Source: a virus. Taken from it: a DNA stretch of 26,189 nucleotides. A program made the translations under genes and the position numbers. Below the pieces are notes generated by a model that searched no databases, was not told the origin of the DNA, and worked only from the letters and a program-made list of their open reading frames with translations. The stretch covers positions 1 to 26,189 of IMG/VR virus record IMGVR_UViG_3300048838_000100; one strand, given 5' to 3'. Shown in pieces: positions 3,153-24,744 of the stretch; position 1 is the stretch's first letter, and every line of letters starts with the position of its first letter.

Positions 3153-3449
3153 ATGAGCAGGCCGGTTGGGAGCAAAAACAAAGTTGGCGCTCAGGTCAAA
3201 GAAAACCTAGTTGCGGTGTTCAACCGACTGGGCGGGACGGCAGCGATGGCTGAGTGGGCCAGCGAGAACAAGACGGAGTACTACCGGATGTACGCCCGCC
3301 TTTCACCGACTGAGCTAGATGTAACGGCGCAGGTCATTGATGCCAGCATTCTTACCGACGCAGAGCTTGCCGAACTTATCGCCAGCGGAAGCTGCGCAAG
3401 AGTTACTGACCAGGCGGAAGGCACGGTCGAGTCTAGCGGCGTACATTGA
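3153..3449 (+). CDS. putative terminase small subunit
   Basis: This 98-aa protein opens with MSRPVGSKNKVGAQVKENLV, the lysine-rich start typical of small terminase or terminase-adjacent proteins. It continues with a helical body (NRLGGTAAMAEWASENKTEY, YRMYARLSPTEL) and ends with an acidic helix DAELAELIASGS. The small subunit recognises phage DNA and hands it to the large subunit for packaging. Assignment depends mainly on the position directly before the large terminase and the overall feel of the sequence. The reading frame runs 110 nt into the large-subunit gene in another frame. The last ~20 residues (after LIASGS) look less conserved and may be the by-product of that overlap. Confidence 0.6.
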   Translation: MSRPVGSKNKVGAQVKENLVAVFNRLGGTAAMAEWASENKTEYYRMYARLSPTELDVTAQVIDASILTDAELAELIASGSCARVTDQAEGTVESSGVH

Positions 3450-4830
3450 TCGGCTTGATCTTGGGTTGGTCCCTGCCGCCCATCATCGGTTGCTGATTAG
3501 CGAGCTCGAAGCGCTTGATCGCGGCGACGTTCGCCGGTTGATGGTGCTACTGCCTCCGGGTAGCGCTAAATCAACCTACGCAACAGTCCTGTTCCCGCCG
3601 TGGTTCATGGGTAGGAATCCGGGGCTATCGGTCATCGGCTGTAGCAATACCACGACCCTAGCCGAGCACTTCAGTCGCCGGAGTCGGAATGTGGTGGGGA
3701 GCCAAGCTCACCGTTCTATTTTCTGGGATGGCCTGTCCGACGACTCGACGGCTGCGGGATCGTGGGAGACCGCAAGCGGTTCCAGTTACTACGCGGCGGG
3801 GGTCGGCGCAACGATCACAGGCCGCCGGGCCGACCTCGGGATTATTGACGACCCGGTTAAGTCACGCGAGGAGGCCGATAGCGAACTGACCCGGCAGAAA
3901 CACTGGGATTGGTACGTCAACGATTTCAAGACGCGGCTGAAGCCGAACTATCGGCAGCTGCACATTCAGACCCGCTGGCATGAGGACGACCTGGCGGGAC
4001 GGATACTCGCTACGGAAGGCGACAAATGGCGGGTCCTGAAGCTGCCGATGGTGGCCGGTCTGGATGACCCGTTAGGCCGCGCCCCCGGCGATCGGTTGTG
4101 GCCGGAATGGTTCACGGCAGAGATGGTTGATGAGGCGCGCCGCGATGAGCGGTCGTTCAGCGCTCTCTACCAGCAGGACCCAAGCCCACAGACCGGCACA
4201 TTCTTCAAGCGTGAATGGTTCTGGTTCTACAAGCCCGACGAAACGAAGCTGGTCAGAAAATACCTCACCAGTGACTTCGCCTTTACCGAGAACGGCGGCG
4301 ACTTCACCGAGATTGGAATTCACGGCGTCTATCAGGATCGCGGCGAAACCAAGCTGTATCTCTGCCTTGACGGCTGGTATGGCCAGCAGGATCAGGTGAA
4401 CTGGGCCGAGGAGTACATGACGCTTGTTGCCCGTCACCGGCCTGTTGTGGAGTTCGGTGAAGGCGGAATGACCCGCCGGGCTTCTGAGGGGTTGCTAACC
4501 CGCGTCAGGCGCGAGCGTAAGGCACCGGGCGGCAAGATCGAATGGATGCCTAGCGTGAGTGACAAGGTAGCGCGAGCGGCCTCCCTGAGGGCAATGGCGA
4601 GCATGGGTCGGGTAGGGCTACCAGACAACGACTACGGCCACCGGGTACTCGCGCAACTGCTGGGCTTCCCGGCTGGCAAGCATGACGACGCCGTGGACAT
4701 GGTGGCGATGATGGCAAGGGCCATCGACCAGGCTCACCCGGCAATGGCGCTAGGGGCTAAGCCCACGGTCGTTAAAGACCGCTGGGACAAGGTATTTGAC
4801 GGTGACGAGGGCGGATCGTGGCGAGTGTAG
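3340..4830 (+). CDS. terL: terminase large subunit
   Basis: This 496-aa protein is the ATP-driven DNA-packaging motor and headful/cos nuclease. The ATPase part shows a P-loop LPPGSAKST (residues 71-79, the relaxed Walker A form found in many TerL proteins), a Walker B/catalytic LGIIDDP (about 167-172) and the coupling-type segment QTRWHEDDLAGRIL. The RNase H-like nuclease part shows TSDFAFTENGGDFTEIG with D312 and later KHDDAVDMVAMM with D449-D450. ATG 3340 is preferred; a TTG lies just before it. The N-terminal helix ending ...HHRLLISELEALDRGD is family-like, so the gene really does begin inside the preceding reading frame. The 3' end overlaps the portal start by 13 nt. Confidence 0.92.
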   Translation: MPAFLPTQSLPNLSPAEAAQELLTRRKARSSLAAYIDRLDLGLVPAAHHRLLISELEALDRGDVRRLMVLLPPGSAKSTYATVLFPPWFMGRNPGLSVIGCSNTTTLAEHFSRRSRNVVGSQAHRSIFWDGLSDDSTAAGSWETASGSSYYAAGVGATITGRRADLGIIDDPVKSREEADSELTRQKHWDWYVNDFKTRLKPNYRQLHIQTRWHEDDLAGRILATEGDKWRVLKLPMVAGLDDPLGRAPGDRLWPEWFTAEMVDEARRDERSFSALYQQDPSPQTGTFFKREWFWFYKPDETKLVRKYLTSDFAFTENGGDFTEIGIHGVYQDRGETKLYLCLDGWYGQQDQVNWAEEYMTLVARHRPVVEFGEGGMTRRASEGLLTRVRRERKAPGGKIEWMPSVSDKVARAASLRAMASMGRVGLPDNDYGHRVLAQLLGFPAGKHDDAVDMVAMMARAIDQAHPAMALGAKPTVVKDRWDKVFDGDEGGSWRV

Positions 4831-6629
4831 AGGCAAAAGACGATCAGCTATCCCGTCTGGTACGGGACTTCGATGCGTGGTTTGACGCCACGCAGGACGA
4901 GCGTGCCGAGGCCATCGAGAGCCGGGATTACTACGATGGCAAGCAGTGGACCGAGGAAGAAGCCCGCACGCTCAAGCTGAGAAAGCAGCCGGTCCTGACT
5001 GACAACAAGCTCAAAGACAAAATCGACTACATGATCGGGTTGGAGATCAACGCCCGCACCGATCCGAAGGCATTCCCGCGTACCCCTCAGCACGTTGAGG
5101 ATGCCGAGGCGATTACCGACGCCCTGCGGTATGTGGGCGATGACCAGGATTTCCCGAAAACCCGCTCCGACGTGGCTGAAAACATCTTCGTTGAGGGCAT
5201 GGGCGGGACGGAAACCTACGTCAAGCAGTCCAAGACTGGCGTTGATGTGTGCATCAAGCGCAACCGTTACGAGCGCTGCTTCTGGGACCCGCATTCCTCG
5301 GAACGCGACTTTTCGGACGCCCGCTATCTGGGCACGTTCGTCTGGATGGACATTGAGACCGCTCAGGAGCGCTGGCCCGATCGTAGCGAGATATGGGATT
5401 CGTGCATGGCTGAAGCCTCCGGCAGCCAGTCGGAGTCTGACAGCGACCGCCCCACGGATACTGTGCATCTGGATCGACTCCGCCGCCGGGTGCGGATCAT
5501 CGAGGCGTACTTCCTCAAGGGCGGCGTGTGGTTTCGGGCCAAGTTCGTCAAGAACGGTTGGATTGAGGAACCGGAAGCGTCCCCGTTCCTCAACGATGAA
5601 GGCGAGCCGGAGCATCCCTACTGCTGGGGATCGGCCTACGTTGACAAGGATAACCACCGTTACGGCGTGATCCGTCGCTGGAAGTCGCTGCAAGACGAGA
5701 TCAATCACCGCCGCAGCAAGTCCCTGCACCTGCTGAATACGAACCAAGTCATCATGGAGGAAGGCGCGGTTGCCGATGTCCAGAAGCTGAAGATGGAGTT
5801 GGCAAAGCCTGATGGCGTGGTTGTTCGCACGCCTGGTATGGAGCTGGTCGTACAGAAGAACTTGGACCTGTCTACCGGCCACTTCCAGATGATGATGCAG
5901 GCGATTGAAGCCCTCGCCATTGTCGGCCCGAAGGCGATCACCAACGTATCCGCGTCACAGTCAGGACGGGCCAAGCAGCTTGACCGGCAGTCTGACGCGC
6001 TGGAACTGGGGCGACTGTTTGACCATCTGCGTTACTTGCAGAAGCAGACCTATACGAAGGTCTGGCACCGGATCAAACAGTACTGGACCGATGAGAAATG
6101 GGTACGGATTCGGGACGATGAGGGTGCGCCCAAGTTCGTCGCCCTGAACAAGCCGATCACGGCGCTGGAGTTGTACCAAGCTGCCCGGCAGTCGGGTCAG
6201 CCGATCCCGCTTGAACTGGCCCGCATGGCGCAGATGACGCCGACGCAGCCCGTCGGCAAGCGTAACGACGTGGCCGCGCTGGATGTGGACATCATCATCG
6301 ACGAAGCCCCGGACGTGGTGACGCTGCAATCCGAGCAGTTCGAGAACCTTGTGGCTCTCGCGCAGGCTGGCGTGATATTCCCGCCCGATGTTTACCTCGA
6401 TGCTTCCGCCATCCGTAACAAGAAGGCGCTGAAAGAGAAGCTGACGGGCGGCGAAGACCCGCAAGCGCAGGCAATGGCACAGGAAGCGGCTGCGATGCAG
6501 AAGCGCGGTGCAGAGGCTGAGATCAGCAAGACGGAAGCCGAAGCTGAGAAGGTCACGCAGGAAGCGAACCAGAAGAAGATCGAGAACATGGCCGGTATGG
6601 CTGGCCTTGCGGGAATGGCGCAGGGCTAA
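4818..6629 (+). CDS. portal protein, P22 gp1-like
   Basis: This 603-aa protein matches the P22-type portal family. The evidence is an N-terminal helix with ESRDYYDGKQWTEEEARTLK, then RKQPVLTDNKLKDKIDYMIG and a conserved acidic/aromatic core RNRYERCFWDPHSSERDFSD. Later come YFLKGGVWFRAKFVKNGW and NVSASQSGRAKQLDRQSDAL. The last 55 residues are an alanine/glutamate-rich helix (TEAEAEKVTQEANQKK), corresponding to the C-terminal barrel-type helix of P22. The portal dodecamer forms the head entry vertex and binds terminase. It is shorter than the 725-aa P22 protein. GTG 4818 is preceded by GAGG at 4807-4810 and overlaps terL. An intrinsic terminator follows 22 nt after the stop. Confidence 0.92.
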   Translation: MASVEAKDDQLSRLVRDFDAWFDATQDERAEAIESRDYYDGKQWTEEEARTLKLRKQPVLTDNKLKDKIDYMIGLEINARTDPKAFPRTPQHVEDAEAITDALRYVGDDQDFPKTRSDVAENIFVEGMGGTETYVKQSKTGVDVCIKRNRYERCFWDPHSSERDFSDARYLGTFVWMDIETAQERWPDRSEIWDSCMAEASGSQSESDSDRPTDTVHLDRLRRRVRIIEAYFLKGGVWFRAKFVKNGWIEEPEASPFLNDEGEPEHPYCWGSAYVDKDNHRYGVIRRWKSLQDEINHRRSKSLHLLNTNQVIMEEGAVADVQKLKMELAKPDGVVVRTPGMELVVQKNLDLSTGHFQMMMQAIEALAIVGPKAITNVSASQSGRAKQLDRQSDALELGRLFDHLRYLQKQTYTKVWHRIKQYWTDEKWVRIRDDEGAPKFVALNKPITALELYQAARQSGQPIPLELARMAQMTPTQPVGKRNDVAALDVDIIIDEAPDVVTLQSEQFENLVALAQAGVIFPPDVYLDASAIRNKKALKEKLTGGEDPQAQAMAQEAAAMQKRGAEAEISKTEAEAEKVTQEANQKKIENMAGMAGLAGMAQG

Positions 6630-7481: not shown

Positions 7482-8597
7482 ATGGCTGATACTACCAACG
7501 CCACGGGCTTGCGCGTCCAACAGTGGGACAGCAAGTTCTTCGAGGAATACGTCCGCGAGAATCGTTTTGCCCCTTACATGGGCACAGACGAGAACGCGAT
7601 CATTCAGATGAAGGAAGACCTGACCAAGAAAAAGGGTGATCGTATCGCTCTGGCTCTGGTCAACAAGCTGAGCAACGCGGCCACCACTGGCACGGCGACG
7701 CTGGAAGGCAACGAGGAAGATTTGACCTCGCGCTCGCACCTCCTGACCGTCGACAAGCGCCGGAACGGTGTTCGGGTTGCCGAGATGAGCGAGCAGAGGT
7801 CGGCTATCGACCTCCGCAACGCTGGCAAGGTGATGCTCAAGAACTGGGCCGTCTCCGACACTCGCACGCTCATCATCAAGGCGCTGAACAGCTTCCGCTC
7901 GGCCAACACGATCTATACCTGGGAGACTGGCGCCCAGATTCAGAACGATGTGGGTCACACGGTGCTGGATGCGTGGCTGGTTGATAACGCAGACCGGCAC
8001 ATCTGGGGCGCGGCCTCGACGGGTGGGACGGACTTCTCTGCGGAACACAACAAGCTCGATAACACGTCCGACAAGATGACGGCCACGCTGCTGACTTCTG
8101 CGAAGATTCTCGCGCAGACGGCCAGTCCGAATATCACGCCGATTCGCACGAAGGGCGATGAGGAGTGGTTCGTGGCGTTCCTGCATCCGTATCAGATCCG
8201 CGATCTGGTGTTGTCCGATACTGTCTTTCAGGCCGCACAGCGTGAGGCCCGTGAGCGCAGTAAGGAGAACCCGCTGTTTCGTGGCGCTGACTATTGCTGG
8301 GACGGCATCATCATCCGCTCGATCCCCGAGATCCCCCTGGTTGCGGCTTCGTCAATTACTGGCGGCTCCGCAGTACAGACGGCGCAGGGCTTCCTCTGCG
8401 GCGCTCAGGCTCTCGGCTACGGTCTGGCGAAGCGGTGGACCAGCAAGACGGAAACGTTCGACTACGGCGATAAGGTCGGCGTTGCCATTGAGCAGATCTA
8501 CGGCATCGAGAAGCTGTGTTTCGGTAGCGGGTCGGGTGATACCGATGATCTCAAGCAGAACGGCGTCGTGTCCATGTGGACTGCGGCTGTCGCATAA
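7482..8597 (+). CDS. major capsid protein, N4-gp56 family
   Basis: This 371-aa protein is recognised as the N4-gp56 family major capsid protein (HK97-type fold). Clear family marks are an N-terminal WDSKFFEEYVRENRFAPYMG, the block IIQMKEDLTKKKGDRIALAL, the LTSRSHLLTVDKRRNGV strand, MSEQRSAIDLRNAGKVML, and near the end VGVAIEQIYGIEKLCFG. It forms the icosahedral shell. It sits after the scaffold and before a probable decoration gene. The length is typical for the family. No fusion, frameshift or insertion is seen. Confidence 0.93.
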   Translation: MADTTNATGLRVQQWDSKFFEEYVRENRFAPYMGTDENAIIQMKEDLTKKKGDRIALALVNKLSNAATTGTATLEGNEEDLTSRSHLLTVDKRRNGVRVAEMSEQRSAIDLRNAGKVMLKNWAVSDTRTLIIKALNSFRSANTIYTWETGAQIQNDVGHTVLDAWLVDNADRHIWGAASTGGTDFSAEHNKLDNTSDKMTATLLTSAKILAQTASPNITPIRTKGDEEWFVAFLHPYQIRDLVLSDTVFQAAQREARERSKENPLFRGADYCWDGIIIRSIPEIPLVAASSITGGSAVQTAQGFLCGAQALGYGLAKRWTSKTETFDYGDKVGVAIEQIYGIEKLCFGSGSGDTDDLKQNGVVSMWTAAVA

Positions 8598-9147: not shown

Positions 9148-9522
9148 ATGGCTAGAGAACTCGAACTGATTTACGGCGACACTCTGGCAGAGATCGGGGC
9201 GACCGGTCCTGATCGGGTGGTGTCTGCTGAAGATGGCGAGGAAATGGCCCGGATTTATACCGGCGTCTGGCACCTGCTCGATGAACTGGGCATTGCCTCA
9301 TGGGATTTAGACGGGCCGGTACCTGATGCGGCGGTAATTCCGTTGGTGTGGGTGCTGGCCTTCCACGCCGCACAACCGTTCGGCATTACCGGCGAACGCT
9401 TGGAGCGCCTGCGGGCGACCGGGCAACTGGCCGGGGCACAGCCGAGTCTCGGGGAGCGCCTGCTGCGGAAACTGGCAGCGCCAGAGTACCTGAGCGATGT
9501 AACCCCGGTGGTGGACTACTGA
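9148..9522 (+). CDS. putative head-tail connector/neck protein
   Basis: This 124-aa mainly helical protein lies between the head block and the gp10-like gene, the place of gp4-type connector or tail accessory proteins in P22-like phages. Features are an acidic N-terminal half with GVWHLLDELGIASWDLDG, a hydrophobic helix AVIPLVWVLAFHAAQPFG, and a C-terminal LLRKLAAPEYLSDVTPVVDY. A tail-end YxSDVTPVxxY pattern resembles small podophage neck proteins, but I cannot prove homology to gp4. ATG 9148 has no Shine-Dalgarno, because the terminator fills the upstream region. An internal ATG at 9244 has GAGG too close to it. The stop overlaps the next start. Confidence 0.55.
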   Translation: MARELELIYGDTLAEIGATGPDRVVSAEDGEEMARIYTGVWHLLDELGIASWDLDGPVPDAAVIPLVWVLAFHAAQPFGITGERLERLRATGQLAGAQPSLGERLLRKLAAPEYLSDVTPVVDY

Positions 9523-10895
9523 TGGCCTTTAGCCGTTTCGCAGTCAATTCCTACACGTCCCCGGCGCTATCGCTGTCGGCGCAGCGTGTCGTGAATGCGC
9601 GAACGGTCAAGGCACAACCGGGCGCAAAGACACAGACCCCGGTATTCCGCTGTCCGGGTATAGCCGCCTTCCAGACCTTCCCTGCGCCGATCCGTGGCGC
9701 GAACCTGGTAGGGGACCGACTGATTGTTGTCGCGGGCACGACCGCTTATGGCGTGTCGTCCAGTGGTACTTTGACGGCGCTGGGGCCTATCCCCGGCTCT
9801 GGTCCCTGCGCTTCGGCGGCGGGGACGGGGAAAGCCGTCTTTCTTTCTTCGGGTGATGGCTATGTGGTCGATTCGGTAGTCACGCCGATCACCGATCCCG
9901 ATTACCTGCCCTCTACGCATGTCACATGGTCAGACGGATATTTCGTGTTTCTGGCGGCTGACCGGGTGTTCACATGCGAGCTCAACGACCCCACCGACCT
10001 CGATGCACTGGCCTTCGATACCCTGATCTGGGCGACTCAACCGCCGAATGCCATCATTGCCGACACCCGCGACCTGATTCATTTCATGCCGCATGCAATG
10101 GCCATCGGCTACAACAAGGGGACGATCCCGTATCCGTTTGGATTATCTCAGGATGGATTCATTGAGCGCGGGTGTCTGGCTCCACGAAGCCCTGCCAAGC
10201 TAGACAATACGGTGTTCTGGCTGGCTGATGATCGGACGGTGCGGGCGCTTCGCGGTAATACCCCCGTCAGAATCACCACAGAGCCGCTAGAACAACTGTT
10301 CGCCACCTTCTCGACCCTCGATGACGCCTACGGCATGGCGATCAGTCAGGGCGGCTGTTTTTCGTACATCCTGACATTCCCTACCGAGGGCCGGACGTTT
10401 GAGTACAACGTGGCCACGGAACTGTGGAACGAGCGGGCTTCCTACGGGGCGGATATGTGGCAGGTAGAAGGCCACATAGAGGCGTATGGAAAGCATTTCG
10501 TGTGGGCTGGTAACAAGCTCGGCATTCTCGACCCTGAAACCTACGCCGAGTGGGGCGAGTCTCAGCCGGTACTGCTCACCTCAGAGCCGATGCATAACGG
10601 GGTTAATTATGTGCATTTTGACCGTATCGAGCTGGATGCCGACATGGGCAACGGGCTGATAACCGGCCAGGGATCAGACCCGCAGATTGCGCTGCGATAT
10701 TCGGACGACGGCGGCAAAACGTGGTCGGCTGACTTCTTCCGGTCGCTGGGGGCGATGGGCGAGACACGGGCACGGGCGATCTATACCCGGCATGGCCGTT
10801 CACGGAACAGGGTCTATCAACTCGTCTATTCCGACCCGACCGTGTTCGCGTTCTACGGCGCGTGGATCAACGAGGCTCCCGCCATTGCCGCATGA
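9522..10895 (+). CDS. P22 gp10-like packaged-DNA stabilisation / tail hub protein
   Basis: This 457-aa protein resembles the Phage_stabilise (P22 gp10) family, whose member is 472 aa in P22. The opening MAFSRFAVNSYTSPALSLSA and QRVVNARTVKAQ is the typical start (Y...S...SaQrxiNlYpE-type). It is followed by a beta-propeller-like series: GANLVGDRLIVVAGTTAYGV, HVTWSDGYFVFLAADRVF, PRSPAKLDNTVFWLADDRTV and ending YQLVYSDPTVFAFYGAWINE. The protein closes the neck below the portal and connects to the tail spike or needle. ATG 9522 overlaps the upstream stop. A longer reading frame back to 9348 runs inside the previous gene and is rejected. Confidence 0.85.
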   Translation: MAFSRFAVNSYTSPALSLSAQRVVNARTVKAQPGAKTQTPVFRCPGIAAFQTFPAPIRGANLVGDRLIVVAGTTAYGVSSSGTLTALGPIPGSGPCASAAGTGKAVFLSSGDGYVVDSVVTPITDPDYLPSTHVTWSDGYFVFLAADRVFTCELNDPTDLDALAFDTLIWATQPPNAIIADTRDLIHFMPHAMAIGYNKGTIPYPFGLSQDGFIERGCLAPRSPAKLDNTVFWLADDRTVRALRGNTPVRITTEPLEQLFATFSTLDDAYGMAISQGGCFSYILTFPTEGRTFEYNVATELWNERASYGADMWQVEGHIEAYGKHFVWAGNKLGILDPETYAEWGESQPVLLTSEPMHNGVNYVHFDRIELDADMGNGLITGQGSDPQIALRYSDDGGKTWSADFFRSLGAMGETRARAIYTRHGRSRNRVYQLVYSDPTVFAFYGAWINEAPAIAA

Positions 10896-11499: not shown

Positions 11500-12354
11500 A
11501 TGGGATTTCTAAGCGATGTAGCCGGGTCTCTAACTGGCGGGTTAATCGGTACGGATGCCGCGTCAGACGCTGCTAAGACATCTGCAAAAGGCGCTGAGGC
11601 CGGTATAGCCGAGCAGCGCCGCCAGTTTGACACGACGCTGCAACTGCAAGCGCCGATGATCAACACGGGCAATGCGGCCCGGTCGTTGCTGGCGTCAATC
11701 ATGGGGCTGGATGTTGCCGGTTCTGAATTCACGGTTGGTGGCACGACCAAAACCACATACCCACAGCCAACGGGTGGCATTAATCGTTTCATGGGGCGAC
11801 CCGTCAATCAGGGTCAGCCCACAACGACCACGACCGGCGGGACGACCTTCACCAATCCCGCAGCATCACCGATGGGCGCGGATGAGATCACGAAGCGGCT
11901 TGAGGCGTTCCCCGGCTACCAGTTCGCTGTAGACCAGGCACGAAAGAACACGCTGGCCACGGCGTCTGCTTTGGGGTCCGGTGGCGGCAACGTGCTGACG
12001 GCGATTTCCGACCGGACGGCGCAGGGCATCGCCATGCCGACCTTCGAGAACTACCTGAACCGGCTCGGTGGGCTGTCTGGGAGCGGCCAGAACGCATCCA
12101 ATGCGGCAGGTACGGCGGCACTGAACACCGGCCAGAACGTCGCTGCGGGCTTGCAGAACGCGGCAGATTCTCGGGCATCGGGGATTCTCGGGCGCAATCA
12201 GAGCATTGGTAGCGCCCTGTCCAGCATTGGCGGGATGGTCGCTGGCGGGATGGGTGGTTTTGGTGGCATGGGCGCTGCTGCTGGTAATGCCGCCGCTCCA
12301 GTCAGCACGGCGCATCTGCCGTGGCTGCTCGGCAATCCGCTCGGGGGGCCGTAA
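11500..12354 (+). CDS. DNA ejection protein, gp7-like
   Basis: This 284-aa protein starts with the glycine-rich hydrophobic MGFLSDVAGSLTGGLIGTDA common in internal/ejection proteins. It has a central EAFPGYQFAVDQARKNTLAT, a GSGGGNVLTAISDRTAQGIA strand and NYLNRLGGLSGSGQNASNAA, then a glycine-rich tail with MVAGGMGGFGGMGAAAGNAA. The PGYQF...ALGSGGGN...NYLNRLxGLxGxGQ pattern matches phage proteins annotated as DNA transfer/ejection (gp7-type). Such proteins leave the capsid first and help build the channel across the host envelope. AAGGG at 11489-11493 serves ATG 11500. The gene overlaps the next by one base. Confidence 0.7.
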   Translation: MGFLSDVAGSLTGGLIGTDAASDAAKTSAKGAEAGIAEQRRQFDTTLQLQAPMINTGNAARSLLASIMGLDVAGSEFTVGGTTKTTYPQPTGGINRFMGRPVNQGQPTTTTTGGTTFTNPAASPMGADEITKRLEAFPGYQFAVDQARKNTLATASALGSGGGNVLTAISDRTAQGIAMPTFENYLNRLGGLSGSGQNASNAAGTAALNTGQNVAAGLQNAADSRASGILGRNQSIGSALSSIGGMVAGGMGGFGGMGAAAGNAAAPVSTAHLPWLLGNPLGGP

Positions 12355-15652: not shown

Positions 15653-17626
15653 ATGGCATCAAAAATCTACAGTTCCGCCCGAAGCCGCGAGTTTACATCA
15701 GCGGGAGCGCCTTTGAGCGGCGGGAAGCTGTACTTCTACCTCGCCGGGACGACAACCCCGGCCACGGTGTATACCAGCTCGGCCATGACCACGGCCCACG
15801 CGCACCCGGTATTGGCTACCACGGCGGGCCTGTTCCCGGCCATTTGGCTGTCTGCCGGCGTCACCTATGACATCACCTGCAAGAACTCGGCTAATGCAGT
15901 GCAATGGACGGTGCTGAACTACTCGGACGCGCTGACGGCGGATGAAGTTGCGCCGCTGATTTTCCCCCGAACCGCCGCTGAGATTGCCGCTGGCGTTACG
16001 CCTACGGACTACGGGTATGAACCGGGCGACGCGCGGCGGTACGGGGCGGTTGGTGACGGGGCTGCGGATGACACCACTCCTGTCAGTAACGCCGTTTTGT
16101 CTAACGACCGCGTGTTTGGCGAACCGGGGGCAACGTATAGACTCACTTCAGGCATTACGCTGATCGAAAATCAGGTGTTTGATGCCACTGGTCTGACATT
16201 CGACATAGCTCACGCTGAAACGGCGTTCACTCTACCAAGCGGATGCACATGGATCGGCGGAAAGATAGTCGGCCCTGGAATCGCCTACACGCTTGGCAGC
16301 AAGGCAATGTACGCGACCGGCACGCGGAATGGAGCTGCCGTAGCCCCAACCAGAGTGTCAGACATCACGATAAACGATGTGTGGATCGACGGCTTCGGTG
16401 AGTACGGCATTGAAATGCTCTATACCGATAACGTGCGGATAAACAGGCCGCGACTCTCCAACATAGGTTACGCCGCTATTCTTGGCTATTCAGCGCGAGA
16501 GACGCGGGTATATGCGCCGTGGATAGATACTCTGGCTGGTGAAACCGTGTCCGGTGAGTTGAACGCCTATGGTATTGCGTTTACATCGTTGGTCAATGCT
16601 TCGGATTTCGTCAGAGACCCGGTAAGCGTTGATTGTGGTGTGTACGGCGGAACTATTGCCAACATCCCAACATGGCAGGGGCTGGATACCCACGGCGGCT
16701 CATTCATTGAGTTCAAGGGCGTCACGCTAACAAACTGTCGAGTAGGGGCGGCTCTGACAAATCTCACGACGATTGGCGCAAGCGATTGCGTTATCGAAGG
16801 ATGTGTGTACCAGAATTGGTACACCGCAGGCGAGACAAACAGTAACGGGACATTCAAGCGCGGCGAAGCATGGTGGGATGTTGGCGCAACATCCAGCGCC
16901 AGGAATGCTAGAAACACCATTCGCAACAATGTGTCTGTAAATGCCGGTGATCCTGAGAGTGCGCTTGGCGGGGCCACCATCGAGTTCTCACAAGACGGTG
17001 AATTTAGCAACAACAGAACCTATGGCGCATACAACTGTGGCCTGTATGTAGATGAGTACGTCAGGCGCTATGAGATAACTGGAAACACGTTCACTGATGT
17101 TAGGTCCATCGGCACGGGCGCTGGCGCACCTACAGACAATCCACACTGTATCCGGTTCTTTGGCGCTGACCTGTCCGGGATAACTGTCGCCGGGAACACG
17201 TTTGCCAGGAAGAACTCAGCCCTCGATGTGTACGTTGGTCTGTACGGCGTGCTGTTCGATGCTGCCGCCAATCGCGGCGTGTTTCTCGGGCCGAATACCT
17301 ATGACGGCATCACCACGCCACAGGTCGGGACGTTTACAGGCGTCACCGGGGAAGTTCACAGCGTCGTGTCAGTCGCGTCTGCCGCGACCATATCAATCCC
17401 TTTCGGGTCGAGGACGGTGAGCATTACCGGCACGACAAATATCACGTCGGTGTCTGCTGCCGCTATGGGCGGGCAGACCGTCACGCTGATTTTCGCGGGT
17501 GTTCTGACCTTCACTGACGGGAGCAACCTGAAGCTGGCTGGCAACTTCGTGACCACCGCAGATGACGTGATAACGCTAACGTGCGACGGCACGAATTGGT
17601 ACGAAGTCAGCAGGAGCGTCAACTAA
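15653..17626 (+). CDS. tailspike, beta-helix (pectate-lyase-like)
   Basis: This 657-aa protein begins with a compact phage tail anchor domain at residues about 1-85 (APLSGGKLYFYLAGTTTPAT, TTAHAHPVLATTAGLFPAIW). It is followed by the DARRYGAVGDGAADDT motif at 126-141 that starts pectate-lyase-like right-handed beta helices. The next ~400 residues show helix-rung repeats (e.g. ITINDVWIDGFGEYGIEM, IEGCVYQN, ITGNTFTDVR). The C-terminus (FTDGSNLKLAGNFVTTADDV, ITLTCDGTNWYEVSR) is a common phage tail end domain. The protein probably binds and perhaps cleaves a surface polysaccharide; an active site cannot be fixed from sequence. The ribosome-binding site before ATG 15653 is weak (AAAGAGA). Confidence 0.85.
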   Translation: MASKIYSSARSREFTSAGAPLSGGKLYFYLAGTTTPATVYTSSAMTTAHAHPVLATTAGLFPAIWLSAGVTYDITCKNSANAVQWTVLNYSDALTADEVAPLIFPRTAAEIAAGVTPTDYGYEPGDARRYGAVGDGAADDTTPVSNAVLSNDRVFGEPGATYRLTSGITLIENQVFDATGLTFDIAHAETAFTLPSGCTWIGGKIVGPGIAYTLGSKAMYATGTRNGAAVAPTRVSDITINDVWIDGFGEYGIEMLYTDNVRINRPRLSNIGYAAILGYSARETRVYAPWIDTLAGETVSGELNAYGIAFTSLVNASDFVRDPVSVDCGVYGGTIANIPTWQGLDTHGGSFIEFKGVTLTNCRVGAALTNLTTIGASDCVIEGCVYQNWYTAGETNSNGTFKRGEAWWDVGATSSARNARNTIRNNVSVNAGDPESALGGATIEFSQDGEFSNNRTYGAYNCGLYVDEYVRRYEITGNTFTDVRSIGTGAGAPTDNPHCIRFFGADLSGITVAGNTFARKNSALDVYVGLYGVLFDAAANRGVFLGPNTYDGITTPQVGTFTGVTGEVHSVVSVASAATISIPFGSRTVSITGTTNITSVSAAAMGGQTVTLIFAGVLTFTDGSNLKLAGNFVTTADDVITLTCDGTNWYEVSRSVN

Positions 17627-17913: not shown

Positions 17914-18393
17914 ATGGCGCTCGTTCCCATCAAGCCCGCACAAGTCCCGCTGGAATACACCAGCGCGACCGATATTGATTTCGCCAATGACGTGCTGCTG
18001 CTGGGATCTAATGCCAACAGCAACCAGGTTGTGCGGGTGGCACCGTCAGTGTTTAGGGATGCGCTGGCGCTACCGACCGCTACCGAAGCATTCACCGCCT
18101 CCGACACGCTGACCACTGCCGAGTCTGGCAAGTGGTGTACGAACGTTGGCGCGGCGGCTGCTGTCATGCTAACCGCCCCTGCCAGCCCAACCGTTAACGA
18201 GTGCGAGTACACGCTTGAGCGGGTGGCTGGTTACGCCTTCCGGTTCAAGCCTGGTGCGGGTCATACGGTCAACGGTGGCACGGCTGACAAGTACGTTGAG
18301 CTGGCCGCTGCCGGGGTGCTGACGTTCAAGTACATCCGTGCGGGCGCGTGGGTGATTACCAACGATTCGGCTGCTTGGAACTTTGAGCCATGA
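17914..18393 (+). CDS. small tail/virion protein (hypothetical)
   Basis: This 159-aa protein starts at ATG 17914, 8 nt after GAGG at 17902-17905, and overlaps the next gene as ATGA. The second half has beta-strand character (CTNVGAAAAVMLTAPASPTV, CEYTLERVAGYAFRFKPGAG, GVLTFKYIRAGAWVITND), resembling the C-terminal domain of phage tail fibres that ends in a W-V-I-T-N motif. It may be a separate fibre tip or chaperone, but no family is certain. A longer frame back to 17812 overlaps the spike base gene and is rejected. Confidence 0.6.
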   Translation: MALVPIKPAQVPLEYTSATDIDFANDVLLLGSNANSNQVVRVAPSVFRDALALPTATEAFTASDTLTTAESGKWCTNVGAAAAVMLTAPASPTVNECEYTLERVAGYAFRFKPGAGHTVNGGTADKYVELAAAGVLTFKYIRAGAWVITNDSAAWNFEP

Positions 18394-19157
18394 TCGGCAT
18401 TGGTATCGGCATTAGTCCGGGATGGAACGGCGGCGGTGGTCAGAACCCCGCTGCGATGGTGATTGGTGATACGACAGCCGGTTACTCAATCGCAGCCGGC
18501 GCATCGCGCTACCCCGGCTATCTCGACAATAGCTATACAGATTTTGCTGATGCAACCCTCTCCGTTACGGCTTCTGGTTCCGGGTCGGTCACGGTCGGCG
18601 TGCGTGGCGTGCTAACACCGGGACAAACAGCCGTCACATTAACCGAAAGCCCGATTATCACGGCCCTGTCTGCGGGGGAGGCAACGTATGACATGAGTGC
18701 GTTGCCGTACTTCCCTTTTTACCAGTTCATATTCACTGAGGCTGGCGGGTCGAGCGCGGTCGAGGTTACGGCAACACTGATGCAGTCGGGCACTTGGACG
18801 CAGCCGTACTATTTCCCCACCATAGGTGACTGGTCCGCAGCGTACTCAATCACAGCAGGGGCAACAGCACAGCCTACCGCTGTCGATATGCAGGGTATCG
18901 ACTTGTCGCGGGCGACTCTGGTGGTCATTGTCACCGGGTCTGGAACGCTGTCAGTTTCTGTTGGCGGGTCGTCAACGCTGACCGGCTCAGAGACCGCGTT
19001 CGCAGGCAACCCAATCATGAGCGGCCTGACAGCGGGGACGCATTATCTCGACCTTGACGGCTCGCCAACGCACAACTTCTGGCACATGGATTACACCGAG
19101 ACAGGCGGCGTGTCGTCTGCGAGTGTCCAGTCATACATTGTCACGAGGGCTGCGTAA
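18390..19157 (+). CDS. virion protein with two tandem homologous domains
   Basis: This 255-aa protein has a short glycine-rich N-terminus (MIGIGIGISPGWNGGGGQNP) and then two copies of one beta-rich domain at residues about 26-130 and 146-250. Matching landmarks are GDTTAGYSIAAGAS and GDWSAAYSITAGAT, then ATLSVTASGSGSVTV and ATLVVIVTGSGTLSV. Next come SPIITALSAG and NPIMSGLTAG, and finally FTEAGGSSAVEVTATL and YTETGGVSSASVQSYI. The MIGIGIGISPG opening recalls short phage tail peptides. The protein lies among adhesins and is probably structural. I do not recognise a named family for the repeat domain. Confidence 0.65.
   Translation: MIGIGIGISPGWNGGGGQNPAAMVIGDTTAGYSIAAGASRYPGYLDNSYTDFADATLSVTASGSGSVTVGVRGVLTPGQTAVTLTESPIITALSAGEATYDMSALPYFPFYQFIFTEAGGSSAVEVTATLMQSGTWTQPYYFPTIGDWSAAYSITAGATAQPTAVDMQGIDLSRATLVVIVTGSGTLSVSVGGSSTLTGSETAFAGNPIMSGLTAGTHYLDLDGSPTHNFWHMDYTETGGVSSASVQSYIVTRAA
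18465..19139 (+). repeat. intragenic domain duplication
   Basis: The two copies (18465-18779 and 18825-19139) are recognised at protein level only; the DNA has diverged, so the duplication is old or selection has remodelled it. Each copy is about 105 codons. Confidence 0.75.
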
Positions 19158-21310
19158 TGGCAAAGGTACTAATCGCGCTGCCCCAGTGGATCGTTGAGAA
19201 CAACAGCAACGGGCCTCAGATCAACGATGTTACGGCCATGCTTTCGACGATGGGGTACAGGTACGAGTTTCTCTCCTGCGGGCCTAATTCGACGTACATC
19301 ACAGAAATGAGAACCAGCGGCAAGGGTTATGCCTTCGTCGTTGTGGTCTACCCGCGCACGACTTCAACATTTGTTGGTACTGAGTTTGGTGAGGTATTCC
19401 TGAGCGGCGGCTGTGCAGTTCCGGTGATGGCAACGTATTGCGTATCGCCTGGGGCTGGGAATACCAGCGTGATGGGCGTGTCAGGAACGGGTGTTGTTGC
19501 ATATCGGTATATGATCCACAACACCAAGACGCTGCCGGTCTATGCTGCGACAGTCAGCACCAACAGCGGGCAGGAATCGTCTGTCACGCAGCTTGCCGCA
19601 CACCGCACAACGCCAGCCGATCACATCCTATGGAAGCGTACAGGATCGAATAAGCCGACATACTGCGATGCTGGCGGCACATCAAATAGCTTGCTGCCGT
19701 TTCTGGTTCAGCAGGCCGTTACGGACGGGCACATCGCAGCGCCGCCGAGAAAGCTGCAACTGGCGTTTGATATTGACGACTTCCCTGCCTCTGCTGCCTA
19801 CCAAGCCGACCCCGTGGGCGATGTTGTAACGGTTTACGAGGCGCTGATTACGCACGGTCTTCAGACTGCGAACGGCATCCACGGGCGCGACATTGACACC
19901 GATCAGCCGGACTGGGTATGGGACTATGTTGCCGCCAGAACCCCAGACTTGGGGGGTGTGTATTGGGCCATAGAACATCAGGGCAGCACACTATGGAGCG
20001 ACACGTATACCAATGTTCTGGACTTCTACCACAAGCACAATGCGGCGATCAGAGCAAAAGGCATTCGTACCGGCTTTGACCTGAATCAATCCGACTCGTG
20101 GGGATACCACTACTTCAACACGAATTTGCGAGCGCCTGACGGTCTGCGCGTCTGTAGTGAGATGGGCATGAAGGTGGTGCGCTTTGAAAGTGGCACCAGT
20201 TATCTTGCGCCTGAGCCTGTGACTTGCGGTACACAGACAAGCCGCATCCTCGGCATGTTGGCTGTCGGGTCAGAGAGTCCATACAACTCAACGACGAAAA
20301 CGCTTGACCCGCTTGATGGCGAGGACACCACATCATCCTCATCAGGTAACGCGCTGGCGTCCCGCTGGCTTCAGGGGTCGTGGCTTACCAATGGTGGCGC
20401 TCACCATCAGGTCCCATACGTCCACGGTGGAAACTTTGAGGACATAGCTATAGGTGTTCCCGATGGCGTTGGGGAGTACACCCTTCAAAACATGGGCGAC
20501 ACATTAGCAATGCTGCATGACGTTGTTGAGTCGGTGCATCCGATTGATATAGGCGACCGGTACGGGTTCACGAAGTCGCGGGTTGTTGTGGATCAGCCCG
20601 CGCTGGCAACTGTGGTATTTAATGGCACTGATACTTGGCTTGCGGATCACACGAATCGCAGCCGGGCCGATACGGGTGAACTGACATTATTTTGTGAGGT
20701 CGAGTTTACTGGTGGGGACGCGGCGCTAAAAACCATATTCATAATGTCTACGAGCGGGTCTGCGCGGCGTTTCGCGCTGGAGCGAGACGCATCTGACAAG
20801 CTATCGCTGACTATTCGGGACACGAGCAACAATAGCTGCAACCGAGTATCAGCGGGCGCATATACGTCTGCAAATGGCGTTCTGCAAATCATCGTGAGCG
20901 CGAACAAGACAGCGAGCCGCGTGCAGATGTATGTCAGCGAGGATGGTGGCGCGTGGTCGCAGGTGCTTACAAATACGACATGGGACGGTAGCACGGGAAT
21001 TTGTGGATTATCGCAGGCCGATCTAACAGGTATCGGCGCGTTCCCAACCACCCCCGGCGTATCCGTACAGCGAATGCCCATGCAGGTTGGCTGTTTGTGG
21101 TTCATGCCGGGTGTCAGCTACGACCTTGCGAACTACTCGGATCGCGCCCGATTCGTTAAAGACAACGGGGATCGGCAGTACCTCGGCGCGACAGGGACGC
21201 TGGTGAATGGTCGTCAGCCAGAAATCTGTTTCTTTGGCACAGAATCTGAATGGACGAATCGCGGCTCGTCTGGGACGTTTGCAGAGTACGGGGCAATCAC
21301 GGATGTTTGA
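19157..21310 (+). CDS. polysaccharide-deacetylase-like tail protein with LamG domain
   Basis: This 717-aa protein has three parts. Residues 1-180 look like a Rossmann/flavodoxin-like alpha/beta domain (MAKVLIALPQWIVENNSNGP, then GKGYAFVVVVYPRTT). Residues about 198-475 resemble a NodB/polysaccharide-deacetylase-type barrel: KLQLAFDIDDFPAS with the acidic pair D205/D208 region, then IHGRDIDTD, KHNAAIRAKGIRTGFDLNQS, VPYVHGGNFEDI and MLHDVVESVHPIDIG. Several histidines are available as metal ligands. Residues about 480-717 form a LamG/concanavalin-like domain (LATVVFNGTDTWLADHT, ELTLFCEVEF, SRVQMYVSEDGGAW, LWFMPGVSYDLANYSDRARF). I infer removal of acetyl groups from host surface glycan plus carbohydrate binding. 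GAGGG at 19145-19149 serves ATG 19157. Confidence 0.6.
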   Translation: MAKVLIALPQWIVENNSNGPQINDVTAMLSTMGYRYEFLSCGPNSTYITEMRTSGKGYAFVVVVYPRTTSTFVGTEFGEVFLSGGCAVPVMATYCVSPGAGNTSVMGVSGTGVVAYRYMIHNTKTLPVYAATVSTNSGQESSVTQLAAHRTTPADHILWKRTGSNKPTYCDAGGTSNSLLPFLVQQAVTDGHIAAPPRKLQLAFDIDDFPASAAYQADPVGDVVTVYEALITHGLQTANGIHGRDIDTDQPDWVWDYVAARTPDLGGVYWAIEHQGSTLWSDTYTNVLDFYHKHNAAIRAKGIRTGFDLNQSDSWGYHYFNTNLRAPDGLRVCSEMGMKVVRFESGTSYLAPEPVTCGTQTSRILGMLAVGSESPYNSTTKTLDPLDGEDTTSSSSGNALASRWLQGSWLTNGGAHHQVPYVHGGNFEDIAIGVPDGVGEYTLQNMGDTLAMLHDVVESVHPIDIGDRYGFTKSRVVVDQPALATVVFNGTDTWLADHTNRSRADTGELTLFCEVEFTGGDAALKTIFIMSTSGSARRFALERDASDKLSLTIRDTSNNSCNRVSAGAYTSANGVLQIIVSANKTASRVQMYVSEDGGAWSQVLTNTTWDGSTGICGLSQADLTGIGAFPTTPGVSVQRMPMQVGCLWFMPGVSYDLANYSDRARFVKDNGDRQYLGATGTLVNGRQPEICFFGTESEWTNRGSSGTFAEYGAITDV

Positions 21311-21319
21311 GGGTTTGAC

Positions 21320-23311
21320 ATGAGACTGAAAGCGATAGCAGATCACAACCGGGTTGTACGGCTTGAGGACTGGAGCCTGTCGGCCAGTGATCTGAACGGC
21401 ACGAACGATATGTCGGCGAAGATCACTGAGGCATTTACGCAAGCGTATACAGCGAAATGGCCGCTTGAATTCCCGCAGGGGGTGTTCGGCCTCGGTTCGT
21501 CTGTCACCGTCAGGGCACCGATCATCGGGGCTGGTGGCGGTGGCCCTCGCTCGTATTACCTTACCCCACTATACGGAACCAGATTTGTAAATCTTGGCGT
21601 GACTGGCGCAACAACCGGGATGCTGCAAGTCGATTCCGCATCCGTCGGGACTGATACCCCGCGTGGTTTCTACATCCGAAACGGCATCAGCATTGATGGG
21701 AAAATAGGCGGGTCACTACAAACCGTCATCGGGCTGTATGCGCCAGGTCTTGTTGGCACAAATCTGTTAACTAGGTATGCAATCGAGCGAGTTTATGCGA
21801 CAGGTTGTTCAACCGGGATGCATATCGTCGGTTTTACTGGTGAGATAAGGAACTGCTACGCAATCGAGAACACTCTCGGTCTTGTTCTTAGCGTGGCTAA
21901 TTCTGTGAATATCATCGGCGGCGAATACGCTCCAACTGATTCTGCATCGTCGTGGGCTATACGCTTGCTGGCAAGCGCACACGTCAACTTCGTCGGGGTA
22001 AACGCGGAAAATGCAGACGCTGGCGCGGTTGCGATTCAGGGTAACGGAATTGATATTGCTGAAGGATGTAAGCAGGTATCCATCGGAGCCTATCTTGAGG
22101 ACATGGCGGGTAACTCAGCGACTTCCGGCTATCACGTTCGAGTAGGCGCAATTTCCGCATCAGGGGGCGGTGCAGCGACAAATACGATAGCAGCGGCGGC
22201 AACTGGAATATCCTTCACTAACACGGTGTCTACTGCAAATGCATCCGTTGCTGGTACCTATGGCAGTCTCGGCCCACGCATCCATCTTGGCAACGTCATC
22301 GGTGTAGACCTCGGCACACTAGCGATGACAACGAAAAACCTTGAGATTAGCCAATACGCCAAGAACATCAGCGGGGCAGTCGTTGGCGTCAGCCCGCAAG
22401 CGGGGGGGTCTGTGTCGCTGGCAGACAGCTACGCTTCCAGTTTCTATGTCACGGACGAAACAATGTCGGTAGGCCGCGCAGCGCGGTCATTCATCCCGAA
22501 CCCGTCTGGTCGCGGATCAAGTGGCGCTGCGATCCGTGGCTACCGAGATATTGTGTTGTCGTCAGGCATCACCATTGCGTCTGAGACAAGCATTGTTCGT
22601 GCGGATGGGCACTCTATCAAGATCACTCGCGCTGCTGCTCAAGTGGGCACTTATCCCCGCGCCAGTTTCTTCCCTTACGGGCAGGACGTTCTACTAGCCC
22701 AGAAAGGCACCGCCGTTCTGACCGGCTGGATATATGTGCCGTCAGCCGCTGACGGTAGCCCGAATGATGCGTTCAAGGAGAACGGAACAACCGATCTGCG
22801 GTACCCGGTCGTTGGGTTTGAATACGACACCGGCTCTACCGCATCGTCACACTACAATATGGCCGGAGGAAGCGGCGCAAGCAGCACCGGGTACTACACG
22901 CTCAACGGGTGGACACGATTCTTCTGCTTCAAGCCGATGGCGGATTTCGGCGCGATCACCAGACTCGGGTGGTCTGTCAAGCCGATCAATGACCAGGCGC
23001 CGGTACTCAGCGGCGCGGGACAAGACCACAGCGTCTACATCTGCGACGTTGCATTGTGCGTCAGCCCGCAGTCGTGGACTGATCTACTGGCTGGACGTTT
23101 CTCGCTTGACCCCGCGGCGGGGACGTTCATTGGAGATCAGTTCATCTGTTCGTACACCGCAGCCCCGACCAGTGCGAATACCTACTGGAAAAAGGGCGAC
23201 CAGATTCTGAATCCAGATGCTAATGCTGGAACCTTCCTCATGTGGAGAACTACAACTGCGGGCACTGGTGCGACGGCGGTATTCAAAGACGCAGGCGTGA
23301 TTGCAGTCTAA
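21320..23311 (+). CDS. second beta-helix tailspike/adhesin
   Basis: This 663-aa protein lacks the long N-terminal anchor of the first spike. It opens with a short lead and a pectate-lyase-like entry (NGTNDMSAKITEAFTQAYTA, LEFPQGVFGLGSSVTVRAPI). Rungs of a right-handed helix follow (IERVYATGCSTGMHIVGFTG, EIRNCYAIENTLGLVLSVAN, SVNIIGGEYAPTD). Residues about 410-590 look like a carbohydrate-binding jelly roll (IVRADGHSIKITRAAAQVGT, GWIYVPSAADG), and a short tail ends WRTTTAGTGATAVFKDAGVI. It is probably a capsule- or O-antigen-binding spike. TGAGGG at 21308-21313 lies 6 nt before ATG 21320, overlapping the previous stop. Lack of an anchor suggests attachment through a partner protein. Confidence 0.7.
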   Translation: MRLKAIADHNRVVRLEDWSLSASDLNGTNDMSAKITEAFTQAYTAKWPLEFPQGVFGLGSSVTVRAPIIGAGGGGPRSYYLTPLYGTRFVNLGVTGATTGMLQVDSASVGTDTPRGFYIRNGISIDGKIGGSLQTVIGLYAPGLVGTNLLTRYAIERVYATGCSTGMHIVGFTGEIRNCYAIENTLGLVLSVANSVNIIGGEYAPTDSASSWAIRLLASAHVNFVGVNAENADAGAVAIQGNGIDIAEGCKQVSIGAYLEDMAGNSATSGYHVRVGAISASGGGAATNTIAAAATGISFTNTVSTANASVAGTYGSLGPRIHLGNVIGVDLGTLAMTTKNLEISQYAKNISGAVVGVSPQAGGSVSLADSYASSFYVTDETMSVGRAARSFIPNPSGRGSSGAAIRGYRDIVLSSGITIASETSIVRADGHSIKITRAAAQVGTYPRASFFPYGQDVLLAQKGTAVLTGWIYVPSAADGSPNDAFKENGTTDLRYPVVGFEYDTGSTASSHYNMAGGSGASSTGYYTLNGWTRFFCFKPMADFGAITRLGWSVKPINDQAPVLSGAGQDHSVYICDVALCVSPQSWTDLLAGRFSLDPAAGTFIGDQFICSYTAAPTSANTYWKKGDQILNPDANAGTFLMWRTTTAGTGATAVFKDAGVIAV

Positions 23312-24744
23312 TGGCTAACTCAATCCTAGACTCCCACATGCCGACGACCAGCAACGCGATTCTCACGTCGCACGGGTTTCCTGACAACACCAGTGGTAAC
23401 GCGCTGCTGGTGAGTCATGGCGATCCGTATACATCCGGGACAGACACCACGCCAAACGCCTTCACCTTCACCGATCAAACCGGTGTAGCCACCAGCACCA
23501 CAATCACGTCTGCTCCGATCACGGTCACAGGTATCAACGCTACAGCGACTGTCACCATCACGGGCGGGACGTATCAGATCAACGGCACGGGCAGCTTTGT
23601 CAGCACTTCAGGAACCGTTAACAATCTGGACACCATCACCGTCCGGCATACCAGTTCGGCCAGCAACAGCACCGCGACGAATACCGTCCTGACGGTGGGC
23701 GGGGTGTCTGATACGTTCACCAGCACGACTGTTGCGGCCAGCGGCTCGACGCTGACGCACGGGGCGGAGTTCACGATCACCGGTAGCGGGTTCGGGACGA
23801 AGGTGGCCAATGGTGTAACAGTCAATACCCCAAGATTCTTCTGGAGTGGCAACAACACAGACCCCACGTTTGACTGGATACAAGGCGAAAGCATGAGCAG
23901 GCAGGCTACTGGTTGGCGAGCCAGTACGCCAAACGCCAGAATCAGCCACTACCTTGTAGGTAAGCGAAGCGACGGGGATTATCAAGATTGGGACATGGTT
24001 CGGTCTGTGGACTTTCCTGTTACTACCCAGCCTGTTGAAGTTTACGCCTCCTTTCTTGTGCGGCTAGATTCTTCGTGGGATGACTCGACGCATGAGGCCG
24101 GGTTGTTCGATCACCAGATGAAACCCTGCTCGATGCAGTGGCACGGCGCGGATTACATGGACTCCCCCTACCTATACCACGGAGTTCCGTATGTTGAGTC
24201 AACGGGAAACACGGCTGGTGAGTGGGTTTGGGGGCAGAATGGCATAGCCATCACTAACACCAGTGGAGGAGTGAACGCGGCAAACCCACGAGCCGGGTGG
24301 GTGCGAGTTGAGTATATTGCTTCACACTCGGCTTCTGGTTTTGTGCGGGTATTTGAGACAACCTCAATCAACTCTCTTGGCAGACGTTCTGTACTGGTAG
24401 CAGATGGCGACACTCGTTTTAGCGGTGGCGCATTGCCTTCAGATAGCACTGCTGCGTTCCATTTCGGCGGCTACGTTCGGGACTACGACACCGGGAATAA
24501 CTGGATTTATCACACCAACATGTTCCTAGACGTTGGCTCGACCACTAGAGTCGTTCTCACCGATACCAACGACCTCGTTACAGCTACCATGATTGAACCG
24601 CAGCCTTACACCGCGTGGGGGGCGTCATCTATCACGATAGTCGGGAATTGCGGTGGGTTGGCTTCTAGCAGCACAGGATACTTGTGGGTGCTGACTGGTG
24701 CAAATACGGTTGTTCAAGGCCCAACAGCAGTGACGATCGCATGA
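23311..24744 (+). CDS. multidomain Ig/IPT adhesin with putative jelly-roll C-terminus
   Basis: This 477-aa protein has, in order, three short NxxLxSH repeats (residues 3-36), an Ig-like domain at about 48-140 (PNAFTFTDQTGVATSTTITS, TGGTYQINGTGSFVS, TVNNLDTITVRHTSS) and an IPT/TIG-like segment at about 144-172 (GSTLTHGAEFTITGSGFGTK). A C-terminal half of about 300 residues follows, with aromatic beta strands (FWSGNNTDPTFDWIQGESMS, PVEVYASFLVRLDSSWDDST, WVRVEYIASHSASGFVRVFE) consistent with a lectin/lyase-type jelly roll. It is probably a third receptor-binding protein or a linker for the other two. ATG 23311 overlaps the preceding stop; the upstream extension to 23242 is rejected. It overlaps the next gene as ATGA. 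Confidence 0.65.
   Translation: MANSILDSHMPTTSNAILTSHGFPDNTSGNALLVSHGDPYTSGTDTTPNAFTFTDQTGVATSTTITSAPITVTGINATATVTITGGTYQINGTGSFVSTSGTVNNLDTITVRHTSSASNSTATNTVLTVGGVSDTFTSTTVAASGSTLTHGAEFTITGSGFGTKVANGVTVNTPRFFWSGNNTDPTFDWIQGESMSRQATGWRASTPNARISHYLVGKRSDGDYQDWDMVRSVDFPVTTQPVEVYASFLVRLDSSWDDSTHEAGLFDHQMKPCSMQWHGADYMDSPYLYHGVPYVESTGNTAGEWVWGQNGIAITNTSGGVNAANPRAGWVRVEYIASHSASGFVRVFETTSINSLGRRSVLVADGDTRFSGGALPSDSTAAFHFGGYVRDYDTGNNWIYHTNMFLDVGSTTRVVLTDTNDLVTATMIEPQPYTAWGASSITIVGNCGGLASSSTGYLWVLTGANTVVQGPTAVTIA
23317..23418 (+). repeat. three short N-terminal peptide repeats
   Basis: The motif N-[SA]-[IL]-L-x-S-H occurs three times as NSILDSH, NAILTSH and NALLVSH at codons 3-9, 15-21 and 30-36 of the adhesin. 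Spacing is 12 and 15 codons. The DNA of the copies is not identical. Confidence 0.7.

What the first reader, a model, noticed from the sequence alone, without database searches (positions are those of the whole stretch)
19157..21310. Tail-block deacetylase fused to a lectin-like domain
The protein shows a FDIDDFP acidic motif, an alpha/beta N-terminus and a LamG-like end. Phage tail enzymes that remove acetyl groups from surface glycan are known (SGNH esterase types), but a NodB/polysaccharide-deacetylase-like version flanked by two beta-helix spikes would be an uncommon receptor-processing design. The catalytic assignment is inference; only the sequence motifs are seen.
Basis: partly seen in the sequence, partly recalled or inferred. 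Interest (0 to 1): 0.6.

Follow-up and report, generated by a model that had tools for sequence, protein, structure and literature searches.

The report
Orphan phage tail-region protein, deacetylase-like motif
This is a real but orphan gene in the tail region of a P22-like virus of bacteria; by motif order and domain layout it could be a sugar deacetylase, but no relative was found, both structure predictions failed, and part of the usual metal-binding motif is missing, so the enzyme call is unproven.

Summary
The ORF 19157-21310 (717 aa) is real: long, with a GAGG ribosome site and a start overlapping the preceding stop. FDIDDFP lies at residues 204-210. The window is a 26-kb fragment of a P22/Pam1-like podovirus; the gene lies downstream of a head-bound beta-helix tailspike.

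No homolog was found in phage, plasmid, IMG/VR or GTDB-species searches, nor in 37 related phage records. No Pfam, NCBIfam or PHROG family matched, and no PDB sequence. Both AlphaFold runs failed (pLDDT 33), so the proposed fold test could not be made. FDIDDFP alone is uninformative: 135 other stretches encode it, none related.

The layout (alpha/beta N-domain, then 'DIDD', His at +66, His at +215) parallels Agd3 (CE18) and heparan-sulfate N-deacetylase better than a classical NodB/CE4 enzyme, and residues 12-38 and 198-216 fall in register on a bacterial Agd3-like profile. Scores are weak and post hoc (ranks 28 and 131 against 3,680 decoys), and HHalign gives nothing. The HxxxH metal motif is absent. 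'LamG' and the downstream beta-helix have no profile support.

Verdict: a plausible, divergent and possibly metal-altered deacetylase or glycan binder; unproven.

The parts
19157..21310 (+). orphan 717-aa protein in the tail block (subject of the finding)
   Evidence: ORF, TAATG overlap with the upstream gene, GAGG ribosome site; no homolog
19157..19726 (+). residues 1-190: probable alpha/beta/alpha N-terminal domain, comparable in position with the Agd3/NDST1 N-domain
   Evidence: strand/helix order in a low-confidence model; in-register weak profile hit at residues 12-38, rank 28-32 of 3,680 decoys; Agd3 and NDST1 domain layout from papers
19748..20581 (+). residues 198-475: candidate (beta/alpha) catalytic domain
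   Evidence: order of motifs read from the sequence; no profile match; fold prediction failed
19766..19786 (+). FDIDDFP motif, residues 204-210; D207/D208 would be the catalytic base and metal ligand if this is a deacetylase
   Evidence: translation; same DIDD in NDST1 as printed from PDB 8CCY
19880..19882 (+). H242 (GIHG), alternative candidate metal ligand at the end of presumed strand 2
   Evidence: sequence only; inference
19976..20002 (+). H274-QGSTLWS-D282: the only candidate for motif 2; the second His of HxxxH is missing (T278 at that spacing, or D282 if four residues are inserted)
   Evidence: sequence; spacing compared with NDST1 D320/H389/H393
20423..20425 (+). H423 (YVHGGNFED), candidate catalytic acid, +215 from D208 (NDST1: +209)
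   Evidence: sequence; NDST1 spacing
20591..21310 (+). residues 479-717: C-terminal region, beta-sandwich/CBM-like by eye
   Evidence: CBM_35_2 E=0.02, below cut-off; no PDB match
15653..17626 (+). upstream beta-helix tailspike with Pam1-type head-binding domain
   Evidence: Beta_helix 2.6e-7; 7eeq tailspike head-binding domain 2.2e-13
18390..19157 (+). 255-aa protein just upstream, possible adapter, overlaps the start codon
   Evidence: no family match; overlap
   Evidence: no Pfam or PDB match; only phrog_17585 at E=0.024, unknown function

Best explanation
The protein is a tail-associated surface-glycan enzyme or binder of a P22/Pam1-like podovirus. The most likely mechanism is metal-dependent removal of acetyl groups from host polysaccharide by a divergent Agd3/NDST-like module: an alpha/beta/alpha N-domain helping to bind the chain, a (beta/alpha)7 domain with D207 as base, D208 and H274 (plus H242 or D282 in place of the usual second His) holding the metal and H423 as acid, followed by a C-terminal glycan-binding sandwich. 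Shown: the gene, its place in the tail block, the FDIDDFP motif, the absence of relatives. Inferred: the fold, the metal site, the activity, and virion attachment (it has no recognisable head-binding domain).
For: Tail-block position after ejection proteins and a head-bound beta-helix tailspike. Two-domain layout and motif order like Agd3 and NDST1: both have a Rossmann-like/amidotransferase-like N-domain, then a (beta/alpha)7 domain (papers read). D208 to H274 and to H423 spacing is 66 and 215, against 69 and 209 in NDST1. NDST1 bears the same DIDD. Residues 12-38 and 198-216 fall at the expected places of bacterial Agd3-like profiles (ranks 28 and 131 among 3,680 decoys). The best local alignment with Agd3-like L272 is in register at VDIDDWFAASAHYMAD / FDIDDFPASAAYQAD.
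Against: The profile scores are not significant on their own (E=14 and 86). HHalign does not beat shuffled controls. The pairwise score against L272 is reached by 38 of 200 shuffles, and a semi-global alignment of the NDST1 fragment is no better than decoys. HxxxH is missing. No deacetylase family matches. The fold was not predicted. The Agd3/NDST comparison was chosen after seeing the motif.
Confidence: 0.33

Rival explanations
1. A non-catalytic or differently acting receptor-binding protein: an alpha/beta module and beta-sandwiches that bind host glycan. FDIDDFP is either coincidence or a degenerate remnant of an enzyme site.
For: HxxxH absent; no enzyme family matches; FDIDDFP recurs in unrelated proteins; only a weak CBM-like hint at the C-terminus.
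Against: His at deacetylase-like spacing and the two-domain Agd3/NDST-like layout; tail proteins of this size are often enzymes (general knowledge).
Confidence: 0.35
2. A glycoside hydrolase or other (beta/alpha) barrel carbohydrate enzyme in which the acidic residues of FDIDDFP act as nucleophile or acid, so a depolymerase rather than a deacetylase.
For: The alternating strand/helix look of residues 198-475 and an acidic motif at a presumed strand end also fit this (inference); tail-block setting.
Against: No glycoside hydrolase family matches; the NDST1-like DIDD and spacing of His are not explained.
Confidence: 0.2
3. A classical CE4/NodB polysaccharide deacetylase.
For: The acidic motif at a presumed first strand.
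Against: No Polysacc_deac family hit even at E=10; H(S/T)xxH not present anywhere in residues 198-475; an amidotransferase-like N-domain is not part of CE4 (general knowledge).
Confidence: 0.07

Closest known systems
Agd3-type deacetylases (CE18 with CBM87; PDB 6NWZ; bacterial relatives L269-L272, L277-L279 here)
   Same: Order of an alpha/beta/alpha N-domain (once predicted amidotransferase-like) and a (beta/alpha)7 domain opening with a DD motif after a '...T-x-G...' linker; in-register weak similarity at residues 12-38 and 198-216.
   Different: No significant profile match; HxxxH missing; distance from the second Asp to His is 66, against 132 in Agd3 and 91 in L272.
Heparan-sulfate N-deacetylase domain of NDST1 (PDB 8CCY)
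   Same: DIDD motif, His at about +66/69, a further His at about +215/209, Rossmann-like N-domain.
   Different: Second His of HxxxH absent; alignment score not above decoys; no sulfotransferase domain.
Phage tail deacetylases of SGNH type (G7C gp63.1, Klebsiella prophage receptor-binding proteins; also Aristophanes, PP99, Possum)
   Same: Would do the same job: remove acetyl groups from surface polysaccharide (papers seen).
   Different: Those are SGNH serine esterases; this protein would be a metal-dependent enzyme. No SGNH family was matched here.

Membership tests
CE4 / NodB polysaccharide deacetylase (PF01522) | profile match to the NodB homology domain | tested here: not met
   no match up to E=10 for the domain
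CE4 / NodB polysaccharide deacetylase (PF01522) | motif 1 with tandem Asp on the first strand | tested here: inconclusive
   D207-D208 present; location on a strand not established
CE4 / NodB polysaccharide deacetylase (PF01522) | motif 2, H(S/T)xxH metal ligands | tested here: not met
   no HxxxH in residues 198-475; H274-Q-G-S-T278 only
Agd3 family CE18 (PF25115/PF25116) | profile match to Agd3_CE or CBM87_Agd3 | tested here: not met
   no Pfam match; direct search of the window with PF25115 empty; local profiles E=14 or worse
Agd3 family CE18 (PF25115/PF25116) | CM1 DD, CM2 HxxxH, CM4 His in order | tested here: not met
   DD and a late His present, HxxxH absent
Agd3 family CE18 (PF25115/PF25116) | alpha/beta/alpha N-domain plus (beta/alpha)7 domain fold | tested here: inconclusive
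   both single-sequence models failed, pLDDT 33
SGNH-type phage tail deacetylase | SGNH/GDSL profile match | tested here: not met
   no match in Pfam, NCBIfam or PHROGs
LamG/concanavalin-like lectin domain at the C-terminus | profile or structure-sequence match | tested here: not met
   only CBM_35_2 at E=0.02, below its cut-off; no PDB sequence match
P22/Pam1-like podovirus (the virus itself) | terminase, P22-type portal, coat, head-closure, ejection proteins, Pam1-type tailspike head-binding domain | tested here: met
   PHROG matches; terminase relatives CBW1004C-Prop1, Pam1 and Pan3 at 42-44%; portal relatives to 64%; 7eeq 2.2e-13

The most novel reading that the evidence does not exclude
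A phage-borne, metal-dependent Agd3/NDST-like N- or O-deacetylase used as a receptor-processing tail enzyme, with an altered metal triad (a His/Asp variant in place of HxxxH).
Probability: 0.2. Interest if true: 0.6.

Novelty: new variant of a known kind. Interest (0 to 1): 0.25.

Why it matters
Phage tail deacetylases described in the papers I saw are SGNH serine esterases acting on O-acetyl groups. A metal-dependent enzyme of Agd3/NDST kind could remove N-acetyl groups, a different way of reading and altering host capsule. If the protein is instead a plain binder, it is one more orphan tail protein, which is common.

Tried and rejected
PF12062 hits in two Planctomycete genomes were rejected; the open frame read at one locus is a tyrosine recombinase. 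Agd3-like proteins were sought in viral contigs: none. A repeat of the profile test with L364 used a wrong frame and is not counted; could not recover the right one. Structure prediction with the Agd3-like proteins as alignment was not attempted, because those loci came from a tool not on the permitted list. No fold search was run, as both models were too poor. The chorismate-synthase and FliD matches are noise.

Full report
What is there. The window is a 26,189-base virus record, a fragment of a P22/Pam1-like podovirus: terminase at 3337-4830, P22-type portal at 4818-6629, coat at 7482-8597, head-closure protein at 9348-10895, DNA-ejection protein at 11500-12354. The terminase is 42-44% identical to CBW1004C-Prop1, Pam1 and Pan3, and portal relatives in IMG/VR reach 64%. 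The tail block begins with a tailspike (15653-17626) that has a Pam1-type head-binding domain (7eeq, E=2.2e-13) and a beta-helix (Beta_helix, E=2.6e-7). The ORF of the finding, 19157-21310, follows a 255-aa gene of unknown family, whose stop overlaps its ATG.

The observation. The 717-aa frame is real and coding-like: GC by codon position resembles its neighbours, a GAGG ribosome site lies upstream, and the chance of such an open frame is about 2e-11. FDIDDFP is at residues 204-210. The same seven residues are encoded in 16 other viral and 119 bacterial stretches, none of them related and many probably not coding. The motif alone therefore does not identify an enzyme.

Relatives. None was found: phages, plasmids, IMG/VR patterns, GTDB-species genome patterns, 398 Pseudomonadota genomes, 37 records of related phages. 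Close relatives may have been withheld from these collections, as the tools warn, so 'orphan' means orphan in what was searched. Pfam, NCBIfam, PHROGs and PDB sequences give no credible match for the whole or for any domain.

Structure. AlphaFold2 without an alignment gave pLDDT 33 for the whole protein and for residues 194-478. These models say nothing about the fold, so no fold search was made.

What the sequence suggests. Agd3 (CE18) and NDST1 both have a Rossmann-like N-domain followed by a (beta/alpha)7 deacetylase domain; Agd3's N-domain was once predicted amidotransferase-like (papers PMC7229062 and PMC10864358). This protein appears to have the same order. NDST1 carries DIDD too, with His at +69 and +73 and an acid His at +209; here His lies at +66 and +215 and the residue at +70 is Thr. 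I collected seven bacterial Agd3-like proteins, whose profile finds 6NWZ (3.4e-49) and NDST1 (5e-7) in the PDB, and scored the phage protein against it with 3,680 decoy ORFs. Its best stretches fall where homology would put them (residues 12-38 on the N-domain start, 198-216 on the DD motif), but only at ranks 28 and 131 and E=14 and 86. HHalign is at shuffle level, the alignment to L272 is in register at the DD motif but its score is reached by 38 of 200 shuffles, and an NDST1 fragment scores no better than decoys. The comparison was chosen after seeing the motif, which lowers its weight further.

The weak point of the enzyme idea is motif 2. Known CE4, Agd3 and NDST enzymes use HxxxH or close variants for the metal. 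Nothing of that form exists in residues 198-475. A working site would need another ligand, such as H242 (in a GIHG turn) or D282. These are guesses. An inactive descendant that binds glycan is equally possible.

Other claims of the finding. 'LamG-like' rests on appearance: only CBM_35_2 at E=0.02. The downstream 'beta-helix spike' 21320-23311 has no match to a beta-helix family or structure. The protein has no recognisable head-binding domain, so whether it is part of the virion is unknown.

Known background. Phage tail deacetylases on record in the papers I saw are SGNH esterases: G7C gp63.1 and Klebsiella prophage receptor-binding proteins are so described (PMC10743462, PMC13123978). Aristophanes, PP99 and Possum appeared in a search list only, and their SGNH class is from the finding and my own knowledge. 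I found no paper on a NodB- or Agd3-type phage tail enzyme in the searches made, which is not proof of absence.

Noticed in passing
window 15653-17626: Tailspike with a Pam1-type head-binding domain and a beta-helix; probably the canonical receptor-binding protein of this phage.
   Followed up: partly
window 18390-19157: A 255-aa protein with a Gly-rich start and two similar beta-rich halves by eye, directly before the finding's gene; possible adapter.
   Followed up: no
window 23242-24744: A 500-aa protein with a weak short-tail-fibre PHROG match (phrog_4924, 6e-5) whose frame overlaps the gene before it; perhaps a further glycan-binding tail protein.
   Followed up: no
L269-L272, L277-L279: Agd3-like proteins in a sample of Actinomycetota genomes; L277-L279 form a divergent group that the Pfam Agd3_CE model barely detects (E=0.008 for L277, below its cut-off).
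   Followed up: partly
L281 (MZ188970.1) 19569-21446: Annotated '6-phosphogluconolactonase' although it aligns with the portal protein of the window at 37%: a misannotation in the public record.
   Followed up: no
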